DNA of 64,000 nucleotides from Amyloporia xantha (Eukaryota > Basidiomycota > Agaricomycetes > Polyporales > Adustoporiaceae). How positions within the stretch are numbered: position 1 is the first letter of the stretch; the number at the start of each line of letters is the position of its first letter. Location: NCBI GenBank assembly GCA_036971615.1, contig JAYKKR010000033.1, positions 284,739-348,738 on the forward strand, written 5' to 3'. The translations under genes were made by a program, and so were the position numbers. Under the pieces are notes generated by a model. It made no database searches, had not been told where the DNA came from, and worked only from the letters and a program-made list of their open reading frames with translations. This document shows positions 1,951-54,575 of this stretch, piece after piece.

Positions 1951-1963
1951 GTACCCCCCTCCT
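1951..1963 (-). other. Polypurine tract of the gypsy element
   Basis: On the minus strand AGGAGGGGGGTAC lies directly upstream of the 3' LTR, where plus-strand DNA synthesis of LTR retrotransposons is primed. It touches the last codon of pol. Confidence 0.85.
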
Positions 1964-5807: not shown

Positions 5808-7315
5808 AAACGCTCCTCTTTCATCGCGCGATACTGTCCCAGTTCCTCCCGCATGGACTTCACCTCATTGGCCAACGCAGACACAGACGCTAACATAGCC
5901 GAGAGATCTCCCGGTGTCTGCTGCACAACTTGTGCCTGTTCGGGCTGAGCGCTTGGCGTTGCTGCGCTTGCAGCAACCGTAGCTCGCACACCCTGGCGCG
6001 GAGTGTAAGGTTTGTCCTTACAGGTAGGACAGTCCTTCCGACGATACCCCGGTTTCCCGCAACCGTAACAGGAGCCGTTAAACCTTCCATCACCAACAGC
6101 CGCGATAGTAGAAGAAGAAGCGGCGGTCTGTTGGCGACCCTGTGACGTACGAGCCCCACCACGAGCGAACATATTGAGATCCGGACGGCGCGCGCGGCTT
6201 ATGTCGAGGATTTGTTCTACTGCGAGGACTCGTTTTTCTGCGCTAACCCAGTCATCGAAGGGCTCGAGCTCGATTTTGCGGTAGATGCGCGAGGGGATGC
6301 CGCTAAGGTACTTGTCACGGAGTTCCAGCTTTCCGTAGCCAGAACGGTCCGCCGGACCCTTGAATTGAGCGGAGAACTGTGCGGCAGTTCTCGAGTCGCG
6401 CAAGTTACGAGCGCAGACTTTGGTTAGCTCGACTTGTGCAGCGGCTGCATCGTCGAGATGTCCGAAGCGAGCGGTGAAGGCGTCGGTGAAGGCCTTACGT
6501 GTGGCGAAAGGGGTTCGGCCAGCTACGTAGTCTGCCAGGAAAGGAGTGCCCCATTCGCGGGCTTTTCCGTCGAGAAGACTGATCGCGACCTGGACCTGTA
6601 GCTTGACGGAAGCTAGATCCGTATTGTAGTCGAGATACTCCGAGAGTTGGGCGAGATACCGTTTACATTCCACAACGCTCTCGCCATCGTAGCGTTGGGG
6701 AAGGAGAAGCTTCGCAATGCCTTTGTCTACGGCCATTACCGTCGCGGGGGAGGTCGTAGTTTGCTGCGAGGGCGGAGGCGGTGGTTGTTGCTGCGAAGCG
6801 GTCGTGTGACGCGGGGTAGGACGGGTGGTTTGACGGCCGCGCGGTGCCGACGATGGGGCGGCGGTGACGGGCTGAGATACGACAGGGACTGTCGGAGGGG
6901 GTGTCGGTTGCGTAGACTCGGACTGCGCGGCTCCTCTTTGGGTTCCCGCAGGGGGATTCGCTCGCGAGACAGGGGGAGATGGGAGATGGGAGACTCCTCC
7001 TTCTTGACTTTGGCTGCGGCTAACGCTGCCGCCAGGTCGAGGAATAGATGAGCCAGGGGTGGCAGGTCGAGAGGGAGCGGGGGTGGTGTGACGTGAGAGT
7101 GAAGCGTGCTCGCTCCTGGGTCCTGCGGGGTGTTGGACACGCCGGATAGGAACAAATCGATTATTCGGGGAAGGCTCAGTGATGGAGCGCGGGGTTCGAT
7201 TAGGACACGGTTGTCGGGGGCAGTCGAACCAGTTGTTTTCCTCGAAGTAACAGTCGGTTTGGTCCTGGGTGTCGAAGGCGTGAACGAGTCCGTGACAATG
7301 GAGTTCTTCTGCCAC
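5804..7315 (-). CDS. Gypsy Gag-like protein with an altered zinc knuckle
   Basis: Open frame of about 500 codons before pol. The N-terminal half is rich in Pro, Ser, Thr and Gln. A structural Gag region follows (LLLPQRYDGESV ... FTARFGHLDD), then one zinc knuckle, CYGCGKPGYRRKDC, and a C-terminal coiled-coil-like tail. The knuckle has Tyr where CX2CX4HX4C needs His (TAT for CAT), so RNA binding may be impaired. The frame has no ATG at its beginning: it opens after a TAG at about 7361 and the listed first codon is GTG. Either translation enters from the leader frame at 7200-7520 (by splicing or frameshift) or the start has been lost. In life it would form the particle shell. Confidence 0.82.
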   Translation of the reverse strand: MAEELHCHGLVHAFDTQDQTDCYFEENNWFDCPRQPCPNRTPRSITEPSPNNRFVPIRRVQHPAGPRSEHASLSRHTTPAPSRPATPGSSIPRPGGSVSRSQSQEGGVSHLPSPPVSRANPPAGTQRGAAQSESTQPTPPPTVPVVSQPVTAAPSSAPRGRQTTRPTPRHTTASQQQPPPPPSQQTTTSPATVMAVDKGIAKLLLPQRYDGESVVECKRYLAQLSEYLDYNTDLASVKLQVQVAISLLDGKAREWGTPFLADYVAGRTPFATRKAFTDAFTARFGHLDDAAAAQVELTKVCARNLRDSRTAAQFSAQFKGPADRSGYGKLELRDKYLSGIPSRIYRKIELEPFDDWVSAEKRVLAVEQILDISRARRPDLNMFARGGARTSQGRQQTAASSSTIAAVGDGRFNGSCYGCGKPGYRRKDCPTCKDKPYTPRQGVRATVAASAATPSAQPEQAQVVQQTPGDLSAMLASVSALANEVKSMREELGQYRAMKEERF

Positions 7316-7520
7316 GATGGAGGGAGGAAGGGGAGGTGCGCGTACGTAAAGAAGACCGTTTGACTACGTATCTACGGCGCCCAAGAGAACCCCGAGTGGT
7401 TCGCAATTCACGTGGGACCCAGTACAGCCTTTGATTATTTCGCTGCAGGAATCTAGACCACGCGTTGGTCAACCCAACAAGAGACGCCCACTGAAGTGCA
7501 GTCTCTGAAAGCTCGTTCCA
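7200..7520 (-). other. Gypsy leader reading frame with ALQWA motif
   Basis: Open frame between the primer site and gag, entered after CGTAG at 7523-7521. It reads WNELSETALQWASL and then RFLQRNNQR, in a different frame from gag. The same segment, alignable codon by codon with one 3-nt length change, occurs in the leader of the copia element at 10616-10843 (NSWESALQWAALRG, then RNSQRR). Possible explanations are a leader exon joined to gag by splicing or a shared captured segment. No named domain was recognised. Confidence 0.5.
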
Positions 7521-7910: not shown

Positions 7911-8262
7911 CTACAAGAGTTCAGGGCAGGCTATCTACATGGTCCGTGCGCAGGTGGTCTGTGCGCAGCCTGAGTAAGCAGGCTATGAGTCATAAGTGAT
8001 GTCGTGAGCGGAGCCCGGCGGGGCCCAAGGTCGGCCGGCACCGTGCTTAAGTAAACGTCCGTAAAGGGAAGGCGGGACGGAGTCCATGGGAAGGGAACAT
8101 GTGACCTGTAATGGTCGACGCGTCTAAGTCCATGAACAAGGACTCCCTTGCGATGTGTACAGTAGAATGGCCGTTCGAATAAGAGGGGAAAATAACGATG
8201 AGTAACAGGAGAAAATCGTCCGTATATAGAAAGGAAGAAACGCTCGATGTCAACTCGTGACA

Positions 8263-8267
8263 CCATG
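8263..8267. repeat. Target-site duplication, right copy (CCATG)
   Basis: Second copy of the 5-bp duplication made by the gypsy insertion; partner at 1375-1379. Confidence 0.95.
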
Positions 8268-10023
8268 CTCGATAACTTTTAAAGCAGGTGAGAGCATCAG
8301 ATTTCCGCTTAAGGTAATACATGACACCAAATGAGGAGAAATCGTCGAGAAATGTGACGCAATATTTGAAACCATCAATAGACAGAGATGGCATCTCGAC
8401 GAGGTCTGAGTGAATAAGTTCCAATGATTTAGAAGCGCGAGTAGAAGAGAGTGGGAACGGTTGTCTGTGGGACTTGCCAAGCGCACAACCAGCACAAGGA
8501 TCAGACTTTGGTGCTGAAGAAAGACTATCTGGTGCGCCATTAACATGATTAGGCAATTGACGAATTGTGTTACGTCCCGCATGACCAAACCGTTGATGCC
8601 ACAAGTCATAGTCAGCTTCCACAGATTGCAGAGTCTGAGGCCGGGTGTTTGGATGAAACACTTTGGTTTCAAGCCAATAGAAACCTGAACCATCATGGCT
8701 TGATCGCGCAGTGAGGATTAGGTTCTCACCCGGTTTGGAGCCTGCCCAAAAATTCATAGTGTCCCCATGGGCACTATAGCAGCCTCCTTGGTCAATAATG
8801 GTACGTGGAGCAAAGAAACGATGAGACGCTTCAGGAATATAAAGGACAGATTTAAGAGTCAGGTTGACAATGATTCCGTCACTATTCTGATGTCGCAGAA
8901 GAACTATTCCAACGCCTTTGATATCTATGGTCTTATCTGCGCCGGCTAAGTGCGCATGACCAGGTACTGGAAATTCATGATAGTGATCAAAATCTTCAAA
9001 GACGTTTGTGACATGTGAAGTACAACCTGAGTCGACCATCCATCTTGCGATCTCATCTCCCACATGGTACAGGGAAAGGTTAATTGATTTGGACGAAGAA
9101 GATGCTACCGTTACATCTGGTACAGATTCTATAAGAAGATTGTTAACTTTTGCACCAGAATTCTGTCCCTGTCCTTGTGAAGCTCCAGTATTTCCATTAT
9201 TTTGACCGTGATTCTGTCCACTTCCCTTATTATTTCCACCTTGATTACCGCCTTGCTTGCCCTTGCCTTTGCCCTGCTTATTCCCCTTTTGAGGTGGCTT
9301 TCCATCAGGCCAATGGTTCTCAGTCGAATGATTAGTCTTCCCGCAGATATTACATTTCTTTGGGAGACGAGTAGTCGACGAGACGCGAGAGACATTAGCA
9401 TTTTTAGAGGCCTGACGTCTAGCTTCTTCCTCAATAATTTTGGGGATGACATCTGCTGGTTTAAGTGTAGAAAGGTCTGTAACTGTAGCCAGCAGAGTCA
9501 AAGCAATGGTCTGATAAGAATTGGGCAAGGCATTGACAATAATGAGGGCAGCAAATTGATCTGAGATGGCAATCCCAGCATCAACGGTACGACTACGAAT
9601 TTCCTCAAGTGCTGTTATCTGAGGGCGAAGAGGTTGGGCATCGTCAAAGCGAGTATTGAATAATTGTTGAAAGTAGACGAATGCACCAACAGCACCAGGC
9701 TTGGCATACTGATCTTTAATTGCTTTCCACGCTGCAGCAGCAGTGGTAGTATTGCCAATGAGGAATTGTAGCGAGGAGGAAATATAGATGGTCATCAAAC
9801 CAAGTGCCTTGTCATTTTTCTCATCCCAAGCAGCCTGGATTGTAGGGAGGTCTTCTCCAGCAGCTGCAGCAGTAGGACGAGGAAGAGGTGTGCCTGAATT
9901 CCCTTCAACAATGTTCCAGGAACCAGACCATCTAAAAACACCTCGCATGGCGTTAGACCAGGCAATATAGTTTGTACCATCAAAAATGGGAATGGTGGAG
10001 GTAGGAATCTTGGAGGGATCCAT
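8268..10023 (-). CDS. Ty1/copia Gag-protease-integrase (N-terminal part of the polyprotein)
   Basis: Starts at ATG 10023 (MDPSKIPTST). The Gag region contains FDGTNYIAWSNAMRGVF and a knuckle CNICGKTNHSTENH, in which the last ligand is His instead of the usual Cys. A Gly/Asn/Gln-rich stretch follows, then protease (RWMVDSGCTSHVT), the pre-integrase region (YDLWHQRFGHAG ... CAGCALGKSHRQPF) and the integrase core start (HSDLVEMP, FLDDFSSFG). At 8268 the frame reaches the gypsy insertion (SYRAW) and resumes in frame at 1374. Gag makes the particle, protease cuts the polyprotein and integrase inserts the cDNA. A 5-nt gap separates it from an upstream open frame. Confidence 0.94.
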
Positions 10024-10028
10024 GGCGA

Positions 10029-10469
10029 TCAGAATAAAATGTCAGGGCGAGTGTCAGACTGAAGGAGATAGGCGATGGAAGGTGATTGAGGAATTGATGG
10101 AGTTGATTGAGGAATTGATGGAGGCGATCGATCTGGTTTAACCTCTTTAACTTCTTGATCAAAAGGATCGGATCGAAGAAGTGTAGCCCAAAATGTAATG
10201 GAGAGGTTTGGAAAGTACTCTTCACTGTCAGTGTGACTAAGAGAGTTACTTTCAATATTGTATGGAAAATAACCAAGATCGTCGCTTGTAAGACCACCAA
10301 TATAATCGCCTGCGTAAGGGAATTTCCAGCTATAATCTGTTGGGTAGACAGATATAAGCTGTACTGGCTCTGGTGAAGATCCCTCTGAGTTGCCTGACTG
10401 AGATTGATCTGCCACTGGATCAGCTGCTTCTAATAAAGAAGTCAACGTCTCTAGCTCAAAGATGGACAC
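10029..10469 (-). other. Open frame directly upstream of copia gag
   Basis: 146 codons ending with a stop 5 nt before the gag ATG. It has no ATG; it begins just after TAA and an AATAAG that could be a 3' splice site. The peptide is acidic and Ser/Pro-rich with a short internal repeat (PSIPQS). It may be an exon continuing from the leader frame at 10616-10843, or simply untranslated leader. Not recognised. Confidence 0.4.
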
Positions 10470-16122: not shown

Positions 16123-16514
16123 CCTCGAGGCGACACATTGGCGACACATACTACAATACATAGGCCTATACGCAGCATTCTCTCCCTTCATCCCACTCTC
16201 CCGCTGCATCCAGGGTATCTCACTGCAACTCTCTATCCAGCGTCCGGTTTACATTCTGCCCTTGAGGCACACCCCCTTCCCCACACCTCCCGCTGCCATC
16301 GTTCTCGCTAGCGAACAATTTCTGCATGCTGATACAGGACCACCGCACCCCACTTGACAACTACGGGTAATTAATCCGAAGACTGCCTGTTAACCATCGT
16401 AAGTCCGAAATGCTTATGTGTCGCTCGATCGACGTCAATGGAGCTCATGTAGGCTCTCATTCGTCCTCATTTCTCCATTCGGGTCTCGCATCATCGGTCA
16501 AATCGGCAGTCGTC

Positions 16515-17872
16515 ATGTTGCCAATTCTCCCTCCTGAGATTTGGGACTCCATCATCGATTGCCTGAAGGACGACTACAGTACGCTGGTGACCTGCACGCT
16601 GGTCTGCAAAGCCTGGGGACCTAGAAGCCGGCATAACCTGCCCAGTGAGATGACCTTCTACAATCGAGACGAGGTTGTGCAGGTTGCACAGAACAATGGA
16701 AATCTGTGGAAAGGACCATTGGATGTGACTATATTTGGTGGCCGACTTTTCCCGTGGCGTGAGCCGATCCCTCATTTAAACATGTTCGCCATGATGCTAG
16801 TAGGCCGATGGACGCGGGTGCAGCAGCTTAAAATATCACATGCCCAATGGCGTACTTGTCACCTGGCGCCGCGCATCTTTCTCTATCTCTCGGCCTTCTC
16901 CACAATCACAGCCCTCGAGCTCCATACTGTCAGCTTCCCGTCGATTACCACGCTACGTCGGCTCATCTGCTGTTTCCCAAATCTCCGAGAGCTCTCCTGC
17001 AGCGATCTGTCCTTCCTGGCGCATGGCGCTGCTCGTCCGGCATCTGCGAAGTGGCCAGAGGGGATATCATCGTTAAACTTGTTCAGCAGTGCGGCCCCAA
17101 TGACCGCCATTGCGAACCTCTTGCTCGTTGCTGGTGTCGTTGCCCGCTTGCATGAACTGCATTTTCTGTATGATCGGATTGAACCGCCTTTACATGGTCA
17201 GGCATTGGTGGACGCTGCGGGAACATCACTGAGTACATTGAGGTTGAGGTTCGATGCGGGATACATGTTTGCTGACAGCGCAGAAAGCCGTGCGTCGCTA
17301 TCCTTCTATCGACGGAACAACGTTCACTCATGATTCAATTTCATCATGCAGCCTGTCTCAGCCTTGCTGCTAGTTCACACCTTAAATTCCTCATACTGGA
17401 ACTATTGAATGTCTACGAAAGTATCAAATACGATTGGTTGTTTCGGTGCCTTTCGCAAGTTACATCTGACACCATCGAAACAGTGGAGATTTCCTTTTCT
17501 CTAGAGTTGTCCTTCCCGGTGGACACAAGCGTGCTAAGTATTGGTCAAGACTGCTGTGCGCAATTGGATGACGTTCTGTCTTCTTTCCCTAAATTTTCGA
17601 ACCTTCAAAGGGTTATACTTCATTTGCACAACTTCTATAGTCCCATAGATGAAGACCTGGCACGGGAATTGTGGCCGCAGGTGGTCTCCCACATGCCTCG
17701 GCTGTATGCGCGCGGAATTTTGCAGTGCGTTCTAATTTTTATGCCGCTGATCTGGCTGATTTACTCTTTTACCATCGATGCCAGATTACAAATTTACGGG
17801 AAGGAAATCACACCTTCTATCCTGCAGATCTCCAAATCGAACGAGCAGGCTGGTGCTCTACAATCCCTTTAG
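16515..17872 (+). CDS. F-box/LRR-like protein, copy 2 (apparently intact)
   Basis: Exons 16515-17289, 17352-17724 and 17785-17872; 411 residues. The F-box is at the very N terminus (LPPEIWDSIIDCL, TLVTCTLVCKAW). Leucine-rich repeat-like segments follow (ITTLRRLICCFPNLREL, VARLHELHF, STLRLRF). The start is the ATG five codons before the F-box core, conserved in all copies. The family's intron 2 acceptor (TTTACAG) reads TTTACTC here; using the next AG, 18 nt downstream, keeps the frame, and intron retention also gives an open frame to the same stop. The C terminus ends NEQAGALQSL. F-box proteins recruit targets to SCF ubiquitin ligases; the target is unknown. Confidence 0.82.
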
Positions 17873-20988: not shown

Positions 20989-21382
20989 TCTCGAGGCGGC
21001 ACAGGCCATGCATATTACTGCTATATAGGCCTATCATACACGCACCGTACACTCTGCCCGCAGATCAACCCCCGCCCTCATCTAGGGTTGCCCGCTACAC
21101 TCTCCGTCCAGCTTATGGTCTTCCCTTGAGACCTGCCTTTACCTCCCGCCATCATCTTTTTTGCTTGCGAACGATCTCTACAGGTTGCTCCGTATGCCGA
21201 TTCAGGGTCACCGCGCAGCACGTTACAACCATGAGTACTCAGTCAGAAGACTGCCTGATATCCATCGTGAGTCGGAAATGCTCAAGTATTGCTCAATTGA
21301 CTTCAAAGGAAGTCATTTAGGCTCTCGTCCGTCCTCATTTGTCCGCTCGGGTCTCGCATCACATGTCCAATCGGAAGTCGGC

Positions 21383-22761
21383 ATGTTGCCAGTCCTTCCT
21401 CCAGAGGTTTGGGACTATATCATCGATTGCCTGAAGGGCGACTACAGTACGTTGGTGACCTGTATGCTGGTCTGCAAATCGTGGGAACCCAGAAGTCGGC
21501 ATAACCTGCCTTACGATATGGCCTTCTTCCATCGTGATCAGGCTGTACAGGTGGCAACAGAGGATAGTGGAAATCTGTGGAAAGGACCACAGAATGTGTC
21601 TGTACTTGGCGGCGGATTTGGCGGACGTAAGGGCCCTATCCCTCATCTGAGCACGTTCGCGGCAATGTTGGCAGGCCGATGGACGCGGGTGCATGAGCTA
21701 CGGATATTGCATGCTGAATGGCGTGCTTGTGACATGGCACCGCAGACATTCCTCTATCTCTCGGCCTTCTCAACCATCACACGTCTCTGGCTCAGTGAAA
21801 TCAGCTTCGCATCAATCACCACGCTACGTCGGATCATCTGCTGTTTCCCAAAGCTTGAACGGCTCTACTGTGGCGATCTGTCCTTCCCGGAGGACGAGGC
21901 TGCCCGTCCGGCATTCGTGAAGGGTCCAGAGGGGATATTGCGGTTGGACTTATTCGGCAGTGGGGCCTCGATCTCCCGCATTGCGAACGTCTTGCTTGTC
22001 GCCGGTATCGTTTCCCGCTTGCATGATCTGCATCTTGACTATGATCTCATCAAGCCTCCTGTGCATGCTCAGGCATTGGTGGACACTGTCGGCGCATCAC
22101 TGAATACATTGAATCTGAACTGCCGTATTGGACGTGTCAACGATCGGATTGTTAAAAGCGCAGAACATTGTGTGTCTCTATCCTTTTATTGACCGAATAA
22201 TGTTCATTCCTGTTTTATTTCCTCATGCAGCATGTCTCAGCCTTGTTCCTAGTTCAAGACTTGAAAGGCTCGAGCTGCGTCTAGCCAATGTCTGTGACAG
22301 TACCAACTATGACTGGCTATTCCGGTGTCTCTCTCAAGTCACATCCGACATCATCACGACAGTGCAGATATCTTTCTCTCTGGAAAATGACTCACCGGTG
22401 GATAAAGCTGTGGCACGCATTGGTCAAAATTGCTGTGCCCGACTGGATGGTATTTGGTCATCTCACCGAGCTTTCTCAAACCGTGAAGGTTTTCGCCTTC
22501 GATTGCACATTCACCGGGGTAGTGATATACACGAAGCTCGGGTACAGGTATTGGGGTCACAGTTGATGTCCCATATGCCTCGGCTGTGTGAGCGAGGAAT
22601 TGTGCGGTGGGTTCTCTGTTATCATAATATTGACCTAGCTAATATACAGCTTGCAATCCATTTCTGCCAGTCTGTACATTGATGGAGTTGAGATCGAGAA
22701 ATATATCCCGCAGATCCCTCCGCCGCACGAGCAGGTCTGTGCTCTACAATCTCTCTCGTAA
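21383..22761 (+). CDS. F-box/LRR-like protein, copy 3 (intact reference copy)
   Basis: Exons 21383-22169, 22231-22606 and 22650-22761; 424 residues. N-terminal F-box (LPPEVWDYIIDCL, TLVTCMLVCKSW), then leucine-rich repeat-like strands (ITTLRRIICCFPKLERL, VSRLHDLHL, NTLNLNC, SRLERLELRL). Introns are 61 and 43 nt, GT-AG, both confirmed by frame continuity and by all paralogs. The C terminus is PPPHEQVCALQSLS; the tail ALQSLS is shared by the family. An upstream GTGAGT...TTTAG pair (about 21269-21330) is probably a 5'-UTR intron. Likely a substrate receptor of an SCF ubiquitin ligase (family knowledge); substrate not predictable. Confidence 0.87.
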
Positions 22762-32572: not shown

Positions 32573-35339
32573 TTATACAAGCGCTTCACTCACGTTCCAC
32601 AGTAGCACCGTGCTATCGTCCGAAGCAGACACGATACGAGAACCGTCGGGAGAGAATTGCAGACGGCTGATGCTGTCAGCGTGTTCTGTAAAACGCGCCA
32701 CACAGGCACCCGTTGTCGTGTTCCACACACGGATTGCGTTGTCTTCACCACCGGCTGCGACCAGCTCGCCATTTGCCGAGAATGTCGGTGCAGTGACAAG
32801 ACCATCCCCGCCGTCTATGGTTGACAAATGCTCGCCGCTGAAGGAGTCGCATACTTTGATCGTTCTGTCGTTGGCCACAGATAGTATATTTTTGCCATCG
32901 GGTGAGAACATCGCCGAAAACACGGTCCCGGTATGTTCGCGCAATAACACAAACTCGTCGCCTGAGATAGCGCTGGATATCCTGACGGACCCATCGTCCG
33001 AGCTTGTCACCAGCCGACGACTGTCAGCCGAGAACGCAATGGAATTGATCACGCCTGAGTGGCCGTCAATTTCAATGAGTCGCGAACCGTCCTCTGCACT
33101 CCATATCCGTGCGATGCTGTCTGCACTGGCAGACACGAAGCGAGTGCCATCGCGAGCGAATGCAAGATGCATGACCATAGCATCATGTATCCCTTCTGCG
33201 CGCAGTCTACCCGTTTCTGTGTCCCATAGTCGGATGGAGAAGTCCACAGATGCGGAGACGACGGCTTGTCCATTCGGAGAAAACGCAACGGCCTTGATCA
33301 TCCCTCTATGCCCCTCCAAGACTACTTCTTGCTCGCCGGTGCGCACATTCCATACGACCAATCGCTTGTCGCGGGAACCGGTTACGAGGAATCTGCTATC
33401 TGGAGAGAATGCGAGCGCGGAAATGGACTCCGAATGGCCAGATAGCTCATGTAGAGGTCTATCAATGGCGGAGTCCCAGATGATCACGGAAGAGTCTTCG
33501 AATCCGCCGGCAATATATCTGCCGTCGGAGGAATACGCAAGTGCACAATTCACACCCATGTTTGCATCGTGCGACAGCGAAAGGGTATTGTGACCGGCAG
33601 CATTTGCTGTCTTAGTTGCCTTACCCGCGCTGTTGTTGCGGCTCCCAGGCTCTCGGCCGCTGGACGTTGTGCCAGATGGCTCTTCGAGTAAGTGCAAATT
33701 TCCGTCTTGATCACCAAGGGGGAGATCTATGTCCATTGAATCCACGATCTCGGAGTTCCCAGTCTCTGCATCCATGGAGAACGCTGCAGCATCCACCGCA
33801 TCATGGTTGTCTGTCCGCCCTATCAGGAAGGGTGAATCTTCATCAGGGACAGGCTGCGAGTAGGATTGTCCGATAGACTGCTGTGTCCTGATCCTGTCTT
33901 CAAACAACAGTAAACCGACTAATAGCATCGTTTAGCAACATGGTTAATGATGACCTAGCAAATTTGAGCAACTAACGTCCATTCTCTGTAACTTCAATCT
34001 GTGGCTGAGATGCTCGAAGTAACGCAGGTATGTCTTCGGGAACGTCAGAATCCTTATTGCCCACAACGAAATTAGTCAAATAGGCAACGCAAATTGACAC
34101 CCCACTTACAACACATAACGCGAACAGGTCATAGTCGCTAGCGATCGCGCAATCGGCCTCCGAGTTCTGGAAGGCCCAGGTTCAATACCTCTATTCTAGT
34201 AGGTAGCTGGAATAAAATTGCACTTGCCTCGAGGATATAATCTAGGACATATCCAACCGGGTCATACGGCTAGCCTCAATGTCAGCGCAGTATTAGCAGA
34301 AAGACATAATGTACACAGAACCTTCTGATAAGACGGAACTTGCTCGATAACAAAGTCATCATCATCCGAAAATGATGGGTCCCGGGGCTCAGCTGCAGCT
34401 CTCATCACCCTGGGAAAGATGAGAAGACGCTTCTTCATTTGGAAGTAATGCAAGAAGACACATTGATCTTCTGGAAGGCGGTCGAGGTCCGTCTCCTGTG
34501 TACGGCCTGCCACTGGATGATGGTGGCTATGTGGAGGATGGTTATGGCGCGAGCGGCCGCCTTCCTGGTCGTGACGGGCTGCGCGTGGAGGCCCCGAACG
34601 AGATGTGCAATTGCCTTCCGCTTTCAACATCATTGAACCTGATATCGACGCGTGTATTGTTGATCCAAACTCCCCTCTCACGGATAGCTGCGCACTCTTT
34701 TCCTGATGTCCTCTGATCGCAGAGACGACCCACTGCGTTGTTTTCACGACACCCATGACAAATCGTATCTCGTCGAGCTCAATGCCCAGTCCCAGCGTGG
34801 AGTCGTCGTTGGCAAATTCATACCAGCTGTCCAGATTACGAGCCATGTAGTTTTGCATCTTGCGGAGATTCTGAGAAGTTCGACGACTGGCCGGGTCTTT
34901 CAGGACAAGTAGTGCGCCTTCCTCTTCTGTGCATTTGAACTTGCAACCTATTCCAGCTGCATCCCTGCACGGAAAATGGCCCATTACTAGCCGCGAACGT
35001 GGGCATAAAAATGACTCACGATCCAACATGAGCGTCGAGCTCAATCTCCTTGAGACTCGAACTACCGAACGGGCCACGAGCAATCGCGTTTTCTGTCGTC
35101 CGTCTTCCGAATCCCACACTTCCAGTAAGTCTTTGGAAGCCATCAGGAACTCCAAACTCCTGGTGTATGGGATGATTCGCATCCTTCTCTGCATTGAAGA
35201 GGCGGTAAAACGCCCCGTCTCTCAAGTAGCCGACATCTCCTATTTCTATGTCAACGCCTTCTGGACACCACAAGGGATACCCTTCCTTGCGTCTGAAGAG
35301 TTGTCTGGCGTAGACGTCCCACGCAGGTGAGTCGGACAT
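32573..35339 (-). CDS. WD40-repeat protein with basidiomycete N-terminal region (copy A)
   Basis: Six exons (high to low): 35339-35020, 34964-34322, 34269-34228, 34166-34110, 34052-33977, 33918-32573; 827 residues. Exon 1 has YARQLFRRKEGYPLWCPE and IEIGDVGYLRDGAFYRLFN. Exon 2 has GIGCKFKCT, GALLVLK, MQNYMARN, VKTTQWVVSA and QCVFLHYFQMKKRL, then PYDPVGYVLDYILE in exon 3. This region is frequent in uncharacterised basidiomycete proteins. Exon 6 carries eight WD40 repeats (ALAFSPDSRFLVTGSRDK, SASVDFSIRLWDT, SASDDSTVLLWNV), probably a propeller for protein binding. Intron 3 starts GC (GAG/GCAAGT). Four of the five introns were placed by comparison with copy B. There is no NACHT or other ATPase domain between the parts, so it is not a complete NLR. 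Confidence 0.87.
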
Positions 35340-37420: not shown

Positions 37421-40358
37421 TCAAGCGGGACCGGCCTCTACACGAGCATCGTGTATATTCCACAAGAGGATAGTGCTGTCATCCGAGACAGACACTATAC
37501 GAGTCCCGTTAGGCGCAAAGCGTAGCCGACTGATATTGTCTCCGTGCTGAGTAAAGCGCGCTACGCATGTGCCGGTAGTCGTGTTCCACACGCGAATTGA
37601 GAAGTCTTCACCGCCGGCCGCGACCAGCTCACCATCTGCCGAGAATGTTTCTGCACTGACGAGACCGTCTCCACCATCTATAGTGGACAGCAGCTCGCCA
37701 CTGAAGGAGTCGCATACTTTGATCGTTCTGTCGTTGGCCACAGATAACACATTTTTGCCATCGGGTGAGAACATTGCGGAAAACACGGTCCCGGTATGTT
37801 CGCGCAATAACACAAACTCGTCGCCTGAGATAGCGCTAGATATCCTGACGGACCCATCGTCCGAGCTTGTTACTAGCCGACGACTGTCAGCAGAGAACGC
37901 GATCGAGTTGATCACGCCTGAGTGGCCGTCGATTTCAGCGAGTCGCGACCCGTCCTCTGCACTCCACACCCGTGCGATGCTGTCTGCACTGGCAGACACG
38001 AAGCGAGTACCATCGCGAGCGAACGCAAGATGCACGACCATAGCATCGTGCATCCCTTCTGCGAGCTGTCTACCCGTTTCTGTATCCCACAGTTTGATAG
38101 AGAAGTCCACCGATGCGGAGACAATAGTTTTTCCGTTAGGAGAGAAGGTGACGGCCTTGATCATCCCTCTATGCCCCTCCAAGACGACTTCTTGTTCGCC
38201 AGTACGCGCATTCGAAACGATTAGCCGCTTATCGCGGGAGCCGGAAACAAGGAGTCGGCCGTCCGAAGAAAATGCAAGAGCGGAAATAGCTTCTGAGTGA
38301 CCAGACATCTCCCGCACAGCTTGACCGGTGGTGGTTTCCCAAATAACGACAGACGCATTCTCAAATCCGCTAGCAATATATCGTCCGTCGGGGAGTATGC
38401 GAGCGCACAAATGACGCCTATGTTCTCGTTATGCTGGAGCTGCACATGAGGAAATGCAGGAGGATTCTCCCACTTTACCGTACTGTCATCTTCACCCGAC
38501 CTATCAAAGGATGGATTTGGTTTGCTGGAATCATTGCGACTAGACTGTTCCAGCGACTGATTTGGGGGATTTCTGCAACTCTAGCGTGATGGACGGTGTC
38601 GTCCTTGTTCTGATCACCCTCAACTTGACGCTCGGATGATATTCCTGCGGGGTGTATAGCGGCGTCTCCAACCTGCGCAGTGTCGGTAGGTGAGTCGTCA
38701 ACGTGTTCCACATTCAAAGCCTCCGAAGGTTCGACAACGCGGTGCGGCACGCTGGCACTCTCCTCTGGGACGGCTGGGCCAACAGACGGTGTCATGCTAT
38801 TCTGTTGGAGGAACTCTCTTGATTGGGCAGCCACAACACTATCGTCAATGAATAGCATCCCGACTGACGTATAAATCAGTATTATGAATCATAGACGAAA
38901 TGAAGAGCGACGAACGTCCATCGCCTGTGACCTCGATCTGTGGCTGACAACTCCGAAGTAAAGCAGGTATGTCTTCCGGGATCTCGGATCCCTGGTCATT
39001 GAAACCTGATGTGAGTCAAGTAGAATACAGAACCACCGCCTTCACGCACATTACATAAGAAGAGCAGATCTCTGTCGCTGGCGATCGCGATCTCTGCCTG
39101 TGAATGCTGAGCAAGACGCGCTTCTCAGTGTTAGGCGTCTGACTATAAAGAACGGTAGCATACTTCGAGGATATAGTCAAGGACAAACCCGACGGGATCG
39201 TACGGCTATTGCCAACTTTATCAAACTGGCCGCGACAGGTGAAGTTGGATCGTACCTCGTCAACAGGCGGGACTTGTTCGACGACGGTCTCAACATCATC
39301 GTCATCGGGAGGGCAAGATGGATCACGCGGTTCAGCCGCAGCCCGCATGATCTTAGGTATAAATCCTAGACGCTTTTTCATTTTCAGGTAATGCAGGAAT
39401 ATGCACTGGTTCTGGACAAGAGGCTGCTCTCGATCAGACCGATGAGCGTCAAGCTGCTGCTGACTTCCGTGTTGCCGTCTCTGCGGCTGCTGTGGCTGCG
39501 ATTCCGGTCGTCGATGTCTCTGTCTTGATTGCTGTGGAGAACGCGGACGGTCATTCCTGTGCTGATGATTGTTGTGCTGACGTGTTCTTGGAGGTCCGGA
39601 GCGGGAGATCCAGTTTGCGCTGCGAGTTTGCGTCGTAGTACCTGTGAAAGATGCTTGCACAGGGATCCCAAAATCTCCATTGAACGACACCTTGGCACTT
39701 TTGCCTTCGCGGGTGACTGCCGAAACTGCCCACTCTGTCGTCTTGACAAACCCGATAACGAGCGCGATGTGTTCGAGCTTCATATCAAGCTCCAGGATGT
39801 CGCTGGCAAAATCAAGCCAACTTTGGATGTTCTTGGCCATGTGGTTTTGCATCCTACGAACACTTTGCAAGATCTCCCGTGAAGCCGATTCCTTGATGAC
39901 AAGCAGCGCACCTTGGTCGTCGGTGCATTTGAAGTGACAACCAACACCGACACCATGTCTGCAAACGCATATCCGGTCAGGTCCAACATCTCTAGCAATG
40001 TGAAACATCAACGTCCACGAAATGACACTCACGCAGCAGCTGACGCATCAACGTCGATCTCTTTCAGACTGAAGCTGCTCAATGCGCCTGCATCGATCGC
40101 AGTATCTCTTCTATGCCTCCCAAAGTTGTTGGTCGTCAACTCTGTGAACCCTTCTGGTACTCCAAACTCTTCATGTATCGGATCGTTGCGTCCACGCGTG
40201 ACGTTGAACATGCGATAGAATGCGCCATCCCGCACATAGCCCACGTCCCCGATCTCTACTTCGCCCGCTTCCGTAACTTCTGGACACCACAAAGGGTAGC
40301 CCTGCCCACGTCTAAAGAGTTGCCGGGCATAGACTTCAGCTGGAGATATATAAGCCAT
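37421..40358 (-). pseudogene. WD40-repeat protein, tandem copy B, with frameshifts
   Basis: Same exon layout as copy A: 40358-40033, 39958-39256, 39205-39164, 39106-39050, 38991-38916, 38863-37421; exons 3-5 have exactly the same lengths (42, 57, 76). N-terminal motifs are kept (YARQLFRRGQGYPLWCPE, VEIGDVGYVRDGAFYRMFN, PYDPVGFVLDYILE). Exon 6 changes frame near 38560-38580 and again near 38398, where TCCTCCGAC of copy A is TCCCCGAC, a one-base loss inside the first WD repeat. A 40-nt intron could explain the first change but not the second. The other WD repeats are intact and very close to copy A. It is either a young pseudogene or carries sequencing errors. Confidence 0.8.
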
Positions 40359-43300: not shown

Positions 43301-44846
43301 CTTCGAGATAACATCATTGCAAGTACCATGGTCAGTACAAGCACTGACAGTTGTAACGTGCGTGAACAAAGATGCAAATTCGATGCTGGAGGGTGACGCC
43401 CCTTTAGACAAGATGTCATGCGTTGCTGAAACCGGATCGAAACTGCCAAACCGTGACTGGACGTTACAATTCAAATCAACGTCATCCCAGATTACCTCTT
43501 TCACTCGTGGCTTATCATATCGTTCGTCCATGTAACCTGCTACGTCGCCATTTCCGGTCGCCCCGACACCAATGCTGGTCTCGTCTGCTCCAGCCTGATG
43601 TCACGTTTATTCTCAGAGTAGCTGACTGACAGATCTTTGATGCGTCAACTACCGCACGGCGTTCCTCTAACCGGAGAGCACGCTGTGCATATGGCTACAA
43701 GGCGGCCGTGTTGTCCATCTGATGCTTTGTAGCGTACATTGCACGGGGAGGCGCGAGCTCCTGGCACTCCATCGCTACCGCAATGTCGTCGGACTGTACG
43801 GATTGTTCAACACCTGCATGATTTGATGCGGATGGGCGAGCGCTCTGGGCAGAGGTTCGGATCCCCTACGAAGCGAGTCTGTCCATGCGGTGGCGGTTTC
43901 GTGGCCTCTCCCGTCCGTAATATTCATTGTATTGAAGAGGACGCTGATTTCATGGTTGCTCTTTCGTATCTTCTCAAAGTCATATCACTCTGTCGTCGTG
44001 GCGATGAAGACTGCGCGGTCCTCGGTCCGGACCGAAGCCGTCTTTGGCGCTGAAAATGAGATTGAGACTCGGAATTTCTTGATCACAAGATGCCGCCCGC
44101 AAGGCTTTGTTTGCAATGCCCCCTTGAAGCAGCGCACAGGCGAATCAAAATGTCACGTCAAGGCTTGGACCAATTTTCGACTTGATATCTCAGAAAGATT
44201 TGTCCTGATATGCGGCTAGGTCATTCCAGCTAGCAACAATAGCCTAAGCTGAGCTCCAGATATTCCAGGACATATTGTTATTCACTCAGAATGCAGGTCC
44301 ACCAATATACGAAAATTCTGTCTAAATGATCAGCCAACGGGAGCGTGGCTGCGAGCTGATTTGAAATGATTCCGAACCTCACACTGCTTTTACCACCGAT
44401 ACACCGGTATTGCAAGCTAATAATGAATGTGGCGGTGCTCCATTACACGCGGTGACGGTTCGAGAATCAAAGTGGTGAAACTTGGTAACGGCGGGCCGCT
44501 AATTTTGCATACGTTCAAAAATAACATCGCGTCGAGAATCAGCTCGCATAGATGATCTCTGTGCCTGGCTCGTACGGTATAACAGCTGCAATCCAGCTGC
44601 CCATGAATCCCAGCTCCCAGCCTTTTTTCGAGCTCAAGACTTTCAAGCACAGGTGCTGGTTGGTCAGTGACATATCTCTCCTCATCCACCAACACCCATT
44701 AATATAACATCTTTCGCCAGCCTTGCTTGCTTTTTCTTATTCACTCCTTACGATCTTTTCGAATTCGACTCCTTTCACGACCATTTCTCCTATACTCTAA
44801 CATATTTCGTTTACGAACCCCTCCACGCATTTTAACTATTATCACG
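40359..44846. other. Gene-poor region of 4.5 kb
   Basis: No gene can be supported. Weak candidates: 40623-40844 minus (two hydrophobic segments), 41782-42067 minus (hydrophobic, frame broken) and 43229-43531 minus (100 codons, protein-like composition, MDERYDKPRVKEVIWDD start). None has a recognisable domain or a second copy in the window. The promoter of the repeat-peptide gene lies at the right end. Confidence 0.45.
44699..44708 (+). promoter_or_regulatory. Possible TATA element of the repeat-peptide gene
   Basis: TTAATATAAC about 140 nt before the ATG at 44847, followed by a pyrimidine-rich leader (44720-44830), a common promoter layout of strongly expressed fungal genes. Inferred from position only. 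Confidence 0.35.
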
Positions 44847-46008
44847 ATGCGCTCTTCCATTGTTCTCCCCATCGTTTTCGCTGCCGTCTCCGTAACTCCT
44901 GCCCTCGCCCGCCCGGTCGCAACGTACGTTCCAAATGATATCAACGATCGCATTTCAGATACTTACTACTTCCCTATCCTCCAGAATCACTGTGTCTGGC
45001 GATTCCGAGGCCATCAACTGGAAGAAAGTCGGGCACGTCGCGGAAGATGTTGCGTCCGGCCTCGGGACAGTTCTCAAGTTCCTCAAACGCGAGGACGAGC
45101 TTGTGGCTCGCACTATTGCTGTCGCATCTACGGATGGCAGTGCTGCGATCAACTGGAAGGAAATAGGACATGATGCCGAGGACGTCGTGTCGGGTCTTGG
45201 GACCGTCTTGAAGTTCCTCAAGCGCGAGGACCCCATGCTCGCGCGCGCCTTCGAGGACGAGCTTATGGCCCGTACTGCAGTTGTTCCCGCCGATGGTAGT
45301 GAGGCCATTAATTGGAAGAAGGTCGGACACGTCGCGGAAGATGTTGCTTCCGGGCTCGGCACCGTTCTCAAGTTCCTCAAGCGCGAGGACGAGTTGATGG
45401 CTCGCGCTGAGGCTCAGGCTGCAGGGGATGTTATAGGCAGTGAGGCGATCAATTGGAAGAAGGTCGGACACGTCGCCGAGGACGTCGCATCAGGTCTTGG
45501 GACCGTGTTGAAGTTCCTCAAACGCGAGGACCCTCTGCTCGCACGTGCATTCGAGGATGAGCTCATGGCTCGCGCCGTCTCTGCACCGGTAGATGGCAGC
45601 GAGGCTATCAACTGGAAGAAGGTTGGCCACGTCGCAGAGGATGTCGCTTCCGGACTCGGGACGGTCCTCAAGTTCCTTAAACGTGAGGACGAGCTCATGG
45701 CCCGCGCCGATGCGGCTGCAGCTACGGCTACGGGTAGTGAGGCGATCAACTGGAAGAAGGTGGGACACGTCGCGGAGGATGTCGCGTCCGGTCTTGGCAC
45801 CGTGCTCAAGTTCCTCAAGCGCGAGGACCCACTCCTTGCGCGCGCATTCGAGGACGAGCTGATGGCTCGTGCGGTTGTACCGGCGGACGGAAGCGAGGCT
45901 ATCAACTGGAAGAAGGTAGGCCACGATGCGGAGGATGTCGCATCCGGCCTCGCAACTGTTTTGAAGTTCCTGCGCCGGGATGGGATGGGATTGGATGAAC
46001 TTGACTAG
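44847..46008 (+). CDS. Secreted KEX2-processed repeat-peptide precursor (seven repeats)
   Basis: Two exons, 44847-44923 and 44985-46008 (61-nt intron), 366 residues. Signal peptide MRSSIVLPIVFAAVSVTPALA, likely cleaved after ALA. Seven tandem units follow, each with a 29-residue core that begins SEAINWKK, continues VGHVAEDVASGL and ends VLKFLKR (LRR in the last). Every core ends in a dibasic site, the signal for the Golgi protease Kex2. Linkers start ED and contain DEL-AR-type motifs, alternating short (16-18) and long (23-24). The core has hydrophobic residues every 3-4 positions, so an amphipathic helix is expected. Five cores are identical in protein but differ at silent sites. The architecture is that of KEX2-processed repeat proteins, which include pheromones, repellents and peptide toxins; which role applies is unknown. 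The exon join AC/A ATC restores the frame. Confidence 0.9.
45004..45978 (+). repeat. Seven coding repeats (87-nt cores)
   Basis: Cores begin at 45004, 45139, 45298, 45439, 45598, 45736 and 45892; unit lengths are 45, 53, 47, 53, 46 and 52 codons, then the tail. Cores 1, 3, 4, 5 and 6 encode the same 29 residues. Core 2 (SAAINWKEIGHDAEDVVS) and core 7 (HDAEDVAS, LATVLKFLRR) differ slightly. Confidence 0.95.
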
Positions 46009-46815: not shown

Positions 46816-47400
46816 TCAGGAATGCCCGAAATGGGGCACCACTTCTGCCAGACTCCTCGGTAACTCCAGTAGCTCCCTATTCTCCGAGGCCATAGCATCA
46901 AACTTCTCGCCGTCTACTTTGCCAATGAACGGCAAATAGTCAATCTCGCAGACAGTTCCGCCCTCCGGCAGCGTCCCGTCTTCGAAGTAGAAGTAGGCAC
47001 GAAGGTGTTCCGCAGTGTACAGCGACGGCGCAGGAATGGAAAAGTGTCCGTACGCGTTTTGCATCAGAAGGCCAGAGCTGCGGTATCGCGCATGCACACG
47101 GCGTGCATCATCGAGTGAACAGACCGTATCGTACATCGACGACAGGACCAGAATGGGGTGGGGGACGTGCTCTCCGCCGTCAAGGGACCCGTGTACCGCC
47201 ATTTCGGCCGAATGCGCCAATCGGCACATCTCAAGTACAGCATGCCCCAAATCGGCGCGGCGGAGGAAGAGATGTCGCTGACGTCGGTGAACCACTCGCG
47301 GTACCCCTCTGGTCAGTACGCGAGAGGCGGGCCGTCGCCGCATGTGATCGCGTAAAATGCCTCGGTCTGCACAAGCCACGACGAGACTGCTCCATAAATC
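46816..47400 (-). pseudogene. TAP-like serine hydrolase, 3' fragment
   Basis: Minus-strand remnant of a tripeptidyl-aminopeptidase-like (S33 type) alpha/beta hydrolase. Pieces: TEAFYAITCGDGPPLAY then TGA (47315-47313); YREWFTDVSDISS and WGMLYLRCADWRIRPKWRY; a frame change near 47160; HPILVLSSMYDTVCSLDDAR (catalytic Asp region), LLMQNAYGHFSI (catalytic His) and GTVCEIDYLPF. The nucleophile Ser part is absent. The left end is complete to the stop. On its upstream side the sequence switches abruptly, at about 47395, to the duplicated F-box unit downstream region, so the fragment was joined by rearrangement. Confidence 0.82.
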
Positions 47401-47726
47401 CATATGCAGAAATGTACGCAAGGCGGATGATGGTTCTCCACCGCGCGGTTCTCCTCCTGGGGAAGTATTGCCGTTCGCCGGCTCGACAAACCAGGACAGT
47501 GTCGAGCGGACCGCTGAGCGTTGCCACGGGATTTCATCTGCAATGCGTGCATGCTTTAAGTAATGCAGGGAGCTCGTGAACGGATTGACCTGATCGGTTG
47601 TCAAAGATCTGAAAAGAAGAACAGAGCGCGAGAGCGGAATGGCTGAGAAATGATCAGAAGTGGTATGCAAATGCGGAGGGACTGCGAAACTAGAGGACCA
47701 CGCCTCCCGGGACGCCTGGGGTATGT
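47395..47726 (-). repeat. Truncated downstream part of F-box unit 4
   Basis: Matches 12967-13300 of unit 1 on the opposite strand (GTCGAGCCGGCGAACGG, then CTCCCTGCATTACTT-like sequence), then breaks off at the hydrolase fragment. Confidence 0.65.
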
Positions 47727-49087
47727 TTACGAAAGGGATTGTAGGGCACCAACCTCCTCGTTCGGTGTAGAAATCTGCGGGAGAGAAGGTGTGACCGGAT
47801 CCCGGTCAACTTGCAATCTGGCAGGGATGGAATGCAAACTGTAAGTCGGCCAGATCAATGCTATGAGAATAGAAAACTCACCGCAAAATCTCTCTCTCAC
47901 ACAGCCGAGGCAAATGGGACATCAACTGTGACCCCAATTCTCGTGCATGAGCTCCGTGTACAAGACCGGGAAAACGGTGCAAATCAAGTGTAATGTTTTG
48001 AAGGTTTGAAAAGGTAGGCAGAGAAGATAGAGCATCGTCCAGTCGGGCACAGCAGTTCTGACCAATTCTCGCCACAGCTGTATCCACTAGCGAGAACCAA
48101 GCTGGAAAGAAATGTATCTTCACTGTCTTGATGATACCGGATGTGACTTGATAGAGACACCGAAATAGCCAGTCATAGTTGGTACTTTCGTAGACATCGC
48201 GCAGATGCAGCTCGAGCATTTCAAGTCTTGAACAAGATCCAAGGCTCAGAAAGGCTGTGTGAGGAAATGAATCAGAGATGAACATTGTGCCATTAATAGA
48301 AGGATATGGACGCACAGCATTCTACGATCCGATCAGTTATGTGTCCCACACCGAAGCTCAAAATCAAGCTATTGAGTGATGCGCCCGCAGCGTCCACCAA
48401 CGCCTGAGCACGTAAAGGAGGTTCAATTTGATGATACCGAAAATGCAGTTCATGCAAGCGGGAAACGACACCAGCAACAAGCAAAAGATTCGCAATGTCA
48501 GAGACTCCACTGCCGTATAAGTACAACGATGATAGCCCTTCTGGCCACTTCGCAAGTGCCGGACGAGCAGCCCCATACTCCAGGAAGGACAGATCGCGGC
48601 AGTGGAGCTGTTTGAGATTTGGGAAACAGCAGATGAGCTGACGTAGCGTGGTGATTGTCGGGAAGCTGACATTGGAAAGGCTGAGGGTCGTGTTGGTGGA
48701 GAAAGCGGAGAGATGGAGGAAGACGAGTGGCGCCATGTCACAAGCACGCCATTCAGCATTTGTTATCGACAGCTTCTGCACCCGCGTCCATCGGCCTGCT
48801 AGCATCGCAGCGAGGGTGCTCAGATACGGGATCGGCTTAGGTATGTCAAACATGCCGGAAAATCCAATCACAAACACAATCGATGGCCCTTTCCAAAGAT
48901 TTCCAGTATACTGTGCGGCCTGCACAACACCGTGTCGACTGGAGAATGTCATCTTGCTGGGCAGGTTATGCCGGCTTCTAGGTTCCCACGACTTGCAGAC
49001 CAGCATGCAGGTCACCAGAGTAATGTAGTCGTTTTCTAGGCAATCAATGATGGAGTCCTAAACCTCTGGAAGAAGGACTGGCATCAT
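47727..49087 (-). pseudogene. F-box/LRR-like gene copy 4, nonsense codon in the F-box
   Basis: Exons 49087-48316, 48254-47882 and 47838-47727, with the same exon 2 and exon 3 lengths as copy 1 (373 and 112 nt). The only clear lesion is TAG at 49059-49057 where other copies have TGG, in LPPEVWDSIIDCL. All later sequence is open (TLVTCMLVCKSW, ITTLRQLICCFPNLKQL, ending NEEVGALQSLS). Initiation at a downstream Met would give a protein without the F-box start. Otherwise as copy 3. Confidence 0.86.
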
Positions 49088-52822: not shown

Positions 52823-54188
52823 TCACGAAACGGATTGTAGAGCATCGACCTGCTCGTTTGGTCCAGAAATCTGTGGAATAGGTGTGACCGGAACTTCGTC
52901 AATTTCCAGCCTGGCAGGGATGGAATGCAAACTGTAAATCAGCTAGATCAATGCTATGAGGATTGAAAACGCACCGCAAAATGCCTCGCTCACACAGCCG
53001 AGGCATGTGGGACGTTACCTGCGGCCACAATTCCCGTGCCTGAGCTTTGTGTATAGGACTAAACCGAAAGTCCAAATTAAGTATAACCTCTTGAAGGTTT
53101 GAAAAAGTAGGGAGAGAAGACAGAACGTCATCCAGCCGGGCACAGCAGTCTGATCCAATTCTTGCCACAGTCGTATCCGCCGGTGAGTCATATTTCATAC
53201 GAAGCCAATCACCACTGTCTTGATGGTATCGGATGTGACTTGAGAGAGACACTGAAATAGCGAGTCATAATTAGTACTTTCGCAGGTGTTCCATTGAAAC
53301 AGGATGAGCTCTTGAAGTCTTGAACTAGGAACAAGGCTGAGACAGACTGCATGAGGAAGTAAATCAGGGATCAACATCGTTCCGTCAATAGAAGGATAGG
53401 GACGCACAGCGTTCTGCGCTTTCAGCAATCCGATCTTTTACGCGTCCCATACCAAAGTGCAAACCCAATGTATTCAGTGATGTGCCCGCAGCATCCACCA
53501 ATGCCTGAGCATGTATGGGAGGTTCAATATGATCATAGTCCAAACCCAGTTCATGCAAGCGGGGAACGACACCAGCAGCGAGCAAGAGGTTCGCAATGCC
53601 AGTCATTGAGGCACCACTGCCTAACAGTCCCAACGTCAATATTCCCTCTGGCCACTTCGCAAATGCCGGACGAGCAGCCCCATGCTCCGGGAAGGACAGA
53701 TCCCTGCAGTCGAGCTGTTTGAGATTTGGGAAACAGCAGATGAGCCGACGTAGCGTGGTGATCGACGGGAAGCTGATATCACTGAGCAAGAGGCGTGTGA
53801 TTGTAGAGAAGGCCGAGAGATAGAGGAATATGCGCGGTGCCATGTCGCAAGCACGCCATTCAGCATGCGATATCCACAGCTGATTCACCCGCGTCCATCG
53901 GCCTGCTAGCATCATGGCAAACATATTCAAATGAGGGATCGGCTTCTTGCCATCAATTGTGCCGCCATTTACAGACACAATCGATGGCCCCTTCCACAGA
54001 TTTCGAATATCCTGTGCGGCCTGCACAACCTCGTCTCGGTTGTCGAAGGTCATCTCGCTGGGCAGGTTATGCCGGCTTCTGGGTCCCCACGACTTGCAGA
54101 CCAGCATGCAGGTCACCAGCGTACTGTAGTCGTTCTCTAGGCAATCAATGATGGAGTCCCAAACCTCTGGAGGAAGGACTGGCATCAT
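52823..54188 (-). pseudogene. F-box/LRR-like gene copy 5, one-base deletion in exon 2
   Basis: Exons 54188-53408, 53346-52975 and 52931-52823. Exon 1 is perfect (LPPEVWDSIIDCLENDYST, ITTLRRLICCFPNLKQL). Exon 2 is 372 nt against 373 in copies 1, 2 and 4. The frame breaks near 53185, after DTIKTVVIGF, where copy 6 has one more base before MKYDSPADT. Downstream sequence is then open again to NEQVDALQSVS. A single sequencing error would restore it, so the pseudogene call is provisional. Confidence 0.83.
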
Positions 54189-54575
54189 GACGACTGCCGA
54201 TTTGACCGGTGGCGCGAGACCCGAGTGGACAGATGAGGACGACGAGAATCTACATGATCTCTATTGAAGTCGATCGAGCGATAGGTAAGCAGGTCGGACT
54301 CACAGTGGATAGCAGGCAGCCTTCGGACTAAGTGCCCGTGGTCGTAACGCACTGCGCGGGCGATCCTGAATCTGCGTGCGGAGATCGTTCGCTAGCAATG
54401 GCAACGGCGGCGGGAGGTGGAGGGAAGGAAACGCGGATGTGTCTCAAAGGGAGACCGCAAGGTAGACGGAGAGTGAAGCGTGCGAACCGAGATGAGGGCG
54501 GAGGGCGAGATGTGGGCAGAGAAGACGGTGTATATATGACAGGTCTATGTATTAGTAGTATGCACAGGATGTGCC

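What the first reader, a model, noticed from the sequence alone, without database searches (positions are those of the whole stretch)
44847..46008. Secreted precursor with seven dibasic-bounded helical peptides: a candidate new peptide system
Signal peptide, one small intron and seven cores of 29 residues each ending KR or RR are seen directly. This is the architecture of fungal KEX2-processed repeat proteins. The core (INWKKVGHVAEDV ... VLKFLKR) is cationic at both ends with a hydrophobic face, so the released peptide should be helical and membrane- or surface-active, or a signal. I cannot assign it to a named family. Role (cell-wall peptide, signal, antimicrobial or cytolytic peptide) is inference.
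Basis: partly seen in the sequence, partly recalled or inferred. Interest (0 to 1): 0.88.

Follow-up and report, generated by a model that had tools for sequence, protein, structure and literature searches.

The report
Fungal precursor of repeated helical peptides
A fungus with polypore (bracket-fungus) kin carries a gene for a secreted protein that looks built to be cut into seven near-identical small helical peptides; it belongs to a known class of fungal peptide precursors, and what the peptides do is still unknown.

Summary
Window 44847-46008 (+) encodes a 366-residue protein with a signal-peptide-like start, a 61-nt intron and seven 29-residue cores ending KR (six) or RR (one). The frame is under selection: five cores are identical in protein but differ at 9-16 bases pairwise, and 289 of 353 differences lie at third positions. 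It is a KEX2-processed repeat protein (KEP); the 17 named of 22 database hits are all from Polyporales genera, and its genome holds at least five further loci or locus pairs. The core is predicted helical and amphipathic, but these products carry net charge -1 to -3: 'cationic' is not supported. Spacers and tail recur while cores differ between paralogues. Best reading: secreted membrane- or interface-active peptides used against other organisms; cleavage likely, function inferred. The motif searches found no paper printing the core.

The parts
44702..44707 (+). TATA-like ATATAA, 145 nt upstream of ATG, followed by a pyrimidine-rich leader (68% C+T in the last 100 nt)
   Evidence: consensus match only, not tested
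44847..44923 (+). exon 1; encodes the signal-peptide-like start MRSSIVLPIVFAAVSVTPALA (about 44847-44909)
   Evidence: signal peptide by inspection, no SignalP available
44924..44984 (+). phase-2 intron, 61 nt, GT..AG
   Evidence: 5' site recurs in paralogues
44985..46008 (+). exon 2; seven cores, six spacers, tail and stop
45004..45090 (+). core 1, ends KR
45139..45225 (+). core 2, ends KR (most diverged)
45298..45384 (+). core 3, ends KR; modelled as a helix (45295-45384)
45439..45525 (+). core 4, ends KR
45598..45684 (+). core 5, ends KR
45736..45822 (+). core 6, ends KR
45892..45978 (+). core 7, ends RR
45091..45111 (+). short acidic spacer EDELVAR with LxxR site
45226..45273 (+). long acidic spacer EDPMLAR-AFEDELMAR, one MxxR and one LxxR site
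45385..45405 (+). short acidic spacer EDELMAR
45526..45573 (+). long acidic spacer EDPLLAR-AFEDELMAR, two LxxR sites
45685..45705 (+). short acidic spacer EDELMAR
45823..45870 (+). long acidic spacer EDPLLAR-AFEDELMAR, two LxxR sites
45979..46005 (+). C-terminal tail ending LDELD
   Evidence: 18 of 23 proteins end in [DES]xLD, 12 of them exactly DELD

Best explanation
The gene makes a secreted KEX2-processed repeat protein of a Polyporales family. Shown by sequence: signal-like start, seven cores, acidic spacers, KR/RR and LxxR-type sites, purifying selection on the cores, paralogues with different cores in a similar scaffold. Inferred: in the late Golgi a kexin cuts after KR/RR and after LxxR, a Kex1-type carboxypeptidase trims the basic residues, and each precursor yields seven amphipathic helical peptides of about 34-38 residues (24-residue helix INW...KFL plus a loose N-terminal linker). 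The acidic spacers keep the helices soluble or masked until they are cut away. Outside the cell the peptides partition to membranes or interfaces and act against competitors or grazers; this last step is the least certain.
For: Coding and core constraint. Cutting: LxxR is named as the expanded Kex2 motif in PMC8528282 (passages), and products ending at single arginines were reported for KEPs expressed in Pichia in PMC9769878 (Results part 1). In the window precursor 9 of 9 single arginines after residue 24 have L or M at P4 and A at P2, 8 of 9 being LxxR; over 26 related rows 165 of 328 are LxxR against 32.7 expected from leucine content. A kexin-type P domain is in the genome. Spacers: 4 residue differences in 69 compared codons but 27 third-position differences; linkers vary in length and sequence. 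Helix; 37 of 66 distinct pattern-picked cores have a helical moment above 95% of shuffles. Different cores in related scaffolds, and degenerate or duplicated copies. Knockouts of six C. cinerea KEPs had no apparent phenotype and the authors suggest a role towards the biotic environment (PMC9769878 Discussion).
Against: No expression, peptide or activity data for this species. Predicted products are net acidic, unlike classical cationic lytic peptides. Identity of cores despite many silent changes suggests stricter sequence demands than membrane lysis usually needs. Alanine, the P2 residue here, is not among the P2 residues that PMC8528282 lists as best for Kex2 (passage), so LxAR cutting is less sure than KR cutting. 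Six of the seven cores also contain an internal KK that a kexin might cut, splitting the helix. In relatives P0009, P0013, P0014 and P0016 some cores end in a single R that is not LxxR; P0006, P0009 and P0014 have no KR or RR after residue 24. 29 of 66 cores fail the 95% amphipathicity mark. A near-identical copy on contig C39 is frameshifted in repeat 5.
Confidence: 0.5

Rival explanations
1. The peptides are a self-assembling surface coat, like the repellents cut from Rep1 in Ustilago maydis: amphipathic peptides that gather on hyphae or at the air-water interface.
For: Near-neutral amphipathic helix; identical repeats kept by selection suit co-assembly. The Rep1 precedent is described in PMC8528282 (passages).
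Against: Cores differ between paralogues and species. Prediction is helix, not amyloid-like strand. No sequence comparison with Rep1 was run.
Confidence: 0.2
2. The peptides are signals (hormone- or pheromone-like) read by a receptor.
For: Strict protein identity of five cores with many silent differences; a dipeptidyl peptidase IV-type gene is present; basidiomycete KEPs with alpha-pheromone-like processing are reported (PMC9769878, passages and Discussion).
Against: No Ste13 register: Ala/Pro at 33 of 82 even and 38 of 88 odd positions of the 18 linkers that the pattern caught, and KR/RR is followed by ED or DG. Cores differ between paralogues of one genome, and the products are long.
Confidence: 0.15
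3. The acidic spacer octapeptide (AFEDELMA-type), not the helical core, is the active product, or the precursor acts uncut as a helical structural protein.
For: The octamer pattern is present in 20 of 23 proteins and occurs eight times in P0019; it recurs where cores differ. The precursor model shows helices that run through core and spacer.
Against: The core is about as protein-conserved within the gene as the spacer (46 of 609 against 4 of 69 residue differences); the precursor model is of low confidence, mean pLDDT 62.5, pTM 0.29; cut sites border the units.
Confidence: 0.12

Closest known systems
KEX2-processed repeat proteins, KEPs (PMC6339444, PMC7329392, PMC9769878)
   Same: Secreted precursor with three or more near-identical units bounded by KR/RR.
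   Different: The basidiomycete motifs named in the parts I saw are shorter (XSDW; APSW-type; AADW) apart from a 20-residue C. cinerea product. The acidic LxxR-type spacers and the DELD-type tail were not described in the parts I saw. Umemura's widespread type G-1 has 1.03 per strain and is tyrosine-rich; here one genome has several loci and the window core has no tyrosine.
Candidalysin precursor Ece1 of Candida albicans
   Same: Kex2-cut precursor whose product damages membranes (PMC7329392 passage); that the product is an amphipathic helix is recalled.
   Different: Ece1 is not repeated and one of its eight pieces is the toxin; here the seven units are near-identical. No sequence comparison was run.
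Rep1 repellents of Ustilago maydis
   Same: Kex2-released repeat peptides that act at the hyphal surface.
   Different: Repellents form amyloid-like fibrils; the present core is predicted helical. Sequences not compared.
Mastoparans (Pfam PF08251, PF08249)
   Same: Weak Pfam match; that wasp mastoparans are short amphipathic helices with a start like INWKK is recalled.
   Different: 19.1 bits against a cut-off of 25 for PF08251 and 9.9 against 21 for PF08249; core longer and not cationic; no evidence of common descent.
Dikaritins (ustiloxin-type RiPPs)
   Same: Kex2-cut repeat precursor.
   Different: The 32 UstYa matches listed for this genome are on other contigs than C27 and C12; the window core lacks tyrosine.

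Membership tests
KEP (Le Marquer pipeline) | Signal peptide, no membrane span | tested here: inconclusive
   By inspection only; SignalP and TMHMM not available.
KEP (Le Marquer pipeline) | At least four fragments on cutting at KR/RR, at least three of them similar, occupying 15% or more | tested here: met
   eight fragments, seven with the core; 7 x 28 of 366 residues is 54%. Criteria read; their own software was not run.
KEP (Umemura) | Three or more tandem repeats of 8 aa or more between Kex2 sites, none over 100 aa | tested here: met
   units of 45-53 aa between KR/RR sites. Criteria read; that definition also counts KK, which six cores contain; the scoring script was not run.
KEP | Actual processing to peptides by Kex2 | not testable with these tools
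   Needs peptidomics.
Alpha-pheromone-like KEP | Ste13 (XA/XP) signature after the cut site | tested here: not met
   KR/RR is followed by ED or DG; no register after LxxR in 18 linkers.
Dikaritin RiPP | UstYa/DUF3328 gene near the precursor | tested here: not met
   No UstYa match listed on C27 or C12 (29 candidates scored); none in the Pfam tables of the 30 window frames scanned.
Mastoparan | Pfam PF08251/PF08249 above curated cut-off | tested here: not met
Candidalysin/Ece1 | Sequence homology to Ece1 | not tested
   No Ece1 sequence was fetched.
Rep1 repellent | Sequence homology and fibril formation | not tested
   Not compared; fibrils need an experiment.

The most novel reading that the evidence does not exclude
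A Polyporales peptide arsenal built on one precursor scaffold (signal, acidic LxxR-type spacers, DELD-type tail) into which different helical cores are exchanged by birth and death of genes, comparable in logic to the conserved prepro regions and variable products of animal defence peptides.
Probability: 0.35. Interest if true: 0.65.

Novelty: new member of a known kind. Interest (0 to 1): 0.45.

Why it matters
KEPs are abundant in fungal genomes, yet the function of most is unknown. This family gives a clean case: repeats held identical by selection, a two-motif cutting scheme that predicts exact product masses, and a scaffold shared by very different cores. If the peptides are membrane-active it would add a secreted peptide weapon to these fungi; if the LxxR cuts are real, surveys that cut only at dibasic sites mis-state the products of this family.

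Tried and rejected
Pfam: 15 families matched the exon-2 protein at E up to 10, two above cut-off (DUF1641, PagP), both resting on best stretches of 16 and 28 residues with no stretch passing alone; rejected as repeat-inflated chance. Solved structures: one match to the core, at E 3.2, named sc-apCC-6-LLIA; nothing useful. Third protein search, with the paralogue at C27:75 kb, found nothing at E 1e-3. A search with a piece of P0019 that holds its lysine-rich cores found nothing in this genome at E 0.1. The spacer search at E up to 1 gave 13 matches, at loci already known and none below E 0.02. Ste13 trimming was tested and rejected. Dikaritin cyclisation was tested and rejected. No TTAGGGTTAGGG in the window. 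Fold search was not run: the precursor model is of low confidence and a single helix is uninformative. The contig of P0002, the nearest relative, was not fetched (metagenome scans are capped at 0). Two broader paper searches gave 13 and 8 papers; from titles and abstract starts none was about this family, and only the KEP papers among them were opened. Antisense open frames over the repeats were rejected because the changes fall on third positions of the plus frame.

Full report
Observation. The gene is as described. ATG at 44847, a 61-nt GT-AG intron at 44924-44984, stop at 46006-46008, 366 residues. After a signal-peptide-like start come seven 29-residue cores, six ending KR and one RR. Five cores are identical in protein yet differ pairwise at 9 to 16 bases. 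Over all 21 pairs of the 28-residue core 289 of 353 base differences fall on third positions; for the ten pairs of identical cores dN is 0 to 0.016, and dS is 0.69 to 2.1 in seven pairs and not computable in three. The repeats are therefore kept alike by selection on the peptide and not only by recent copying. This is a real coding gene.

Each of the first six cores is followed by an acidic spacer, short (EDELMAR type) and long (EDPLLAR-AFEDELMAR type) in alternation, then by a loose linker of 7 to 11 residues that varies in sequence. Every single arginine after residue 24, nine of nine, has L or M at P4 and A at P2. LxxR is given as the expanded Kex2 motif in PMC8528282 (passages), though alanine is not among the best P2 residues listed there. 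Products ending at single arginines were reported for KEPs expressed in Pichia (PMC9769878, Results part 1). Over 26 rows (window, 22 database proteins, 3 paralogues) 165 of 328 single arginines are LxxR against 32.7 expected from leucine content. The rows are related, so these are not 328 independent trials. In P0012 (Daedalea), P0016 and P0018 (Fomitopsis) and the unnamed P0013, cores start right after such an AR, which fits LxxR as a true left border. I therefore predict products of 34 to 38 residues, the first one taken to start after arginine 22. Their net charge is -1 to -3; the core from S to L is 0 in five, -2 in core 2 and -1 in core 7. The label 'cationic' fails for this gene, although four of the relatives' cores that I tested are +3 to +5 and P0019 has a core with six lysines and no acid (sequence). 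Six of the seven cores hold an internal KK, which could also be cut.

Structure. The commonest core has a helical hydrophobic moment reached by 0.9% of its shuffles. Of 66 distinct pattern-picked cores in the family, 37 exceed 95% of shuffles and 29 do not; some picks run past the core into the spacer, and the pattern finds none in P0019. AlphaFold2 models the isolated core as one helix, mean pLDDT 90 from a single sequence, and the exon-2 precursor as a string of helices at mean pLDDT 62.5 and pTM 0.29. Short peptides are readily modelled as helices, so this is support and not proof.

Family. A single-sequence search gave 12 proteins and an alignment search 22. Seventeen of the 22 carry an organism name, in Postia/Rhodonia, Wolfiporia, Sparassis, Laetiporus, Daedalea, Fomitopsis and Antrodiella; one species of each was looked up (seven) and all seven are Polyporales. 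The other five have no name, and both searches scored only the candidates sharing most words, so wider spread is not excluded. Twenty of 23 proteins carry the octamer spacer and 18 of 23 end in [DES]xLD, 12 of them exactly DELD. The species of the window itself was not identified.

Own genome. G000 has 46.8 Mb in 60 contigs. A copy on C12 is identical over 3240 bases around the gene and matches the further flanks at 100% after rounding; one on C39 is 97-98% with flanks. I take these as contig overlap and the other haplotype. The C39 copy is frameshifted in repeat 5. Distinct loci are B at C12:196 kb (395-codon frame), C an inverted pair at C27:248 and 267 kb with stops, D at C27:75 and 251 kb with a short SQAFSLSSL-type core, E at C45:1.513 Mb and F at C45:1.604 Mb. 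The intron's 5' site recurs in B, D, E and F, as does a DELD or DDLD end in B, D (C27:75 kb), E and F; cores differ. I read this as birth and death of genes with exchange of cores; counts of loci are lower bounds.

Machinery. A kexin-type P domain is at C12:2.33 Mb and a DPPIV-type gene at C22:249 kb. The 32 listed UstYa matches lie on neither C27 nor C12. Linkers show no Ste13 register, 33 of 82 against 38 of 88 (18 linkers, three of them from the window gene, passed the pattern and the others were dropped).

Neighbours. Of 30 window frames scanned, hits include retroelement proteins, weak F-box, fungal kinase, DUF6699, two WD40 propellers and a TAP-like hydrolase next to the gene; none suggests a biosynthetic cluster. 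Shorter frames were not scanned.

Literature. The motif searches found no paper (five motif strings); searches pairing KEX2 terms with brown rot, Polyporales or mastoparan returned none. Figures are not held. The three KEP papers were seen in part: outlines, passages and named sections or parts of them. Their supplementary tables were not readable here, so a relative may be listed there without a name.

Verdict. A genuine gene under selection, a member of the KEP class in an unnamed Polyporales family, with a probable two-motif cutting scheme. Cleavage at KR/RR is likely, at LxAR probable, function open; I favour a secreted membrane- or interface-active peptide with a role towards other organisms, at even odds overall.

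Noticed in passing
window 47400-48195, overlapping the TAP-like hydrolase ORF 46816-47805 (-): 37 diverged matching pieces of this stretch elsewhere in the genome (40 of 59 candidates scored), many spaced a few kb apart on C12 26-177 kb and others on C27 and C39: an amplified gene family.
   Followed up: partly
window 1962-7363 and 8047-10041 (-): Ty3/gypsy-type (RT, integrase, chromodomain, aspartyl protease) and copia-type retroelement frames near the low-coordinate end.
   Followed up: no
window 32573-33931 (-) and 37421-38428 (-): Two WD40 beta-propeller frames with eight and seven scoring repeats.
   Followed up: no
window 16371-17333 (+), 21086-22192 (+), 53385-54260 (-): F-box-like frames, Pfam scores below cut-off.
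   Followed up: no
window 45979-46005 and family C-termini: The DELD-type tail at the very C-terminus recurs across the family; it resembles a spacer octamer without its arginine. Role unknown.
   Followed up: partly
L012 and L013 (C27:246800-249000 and 266500-268700): Inverted pair of degenerate copies of the precursor with stops in the frame.
   Followed up: partly
P0004 and L016: A second shared element, [IV]NKTPVN, in a Rhodonia relative and in the short-core paralogue: possibly another peptide in the same precursors.
   Followed up: no
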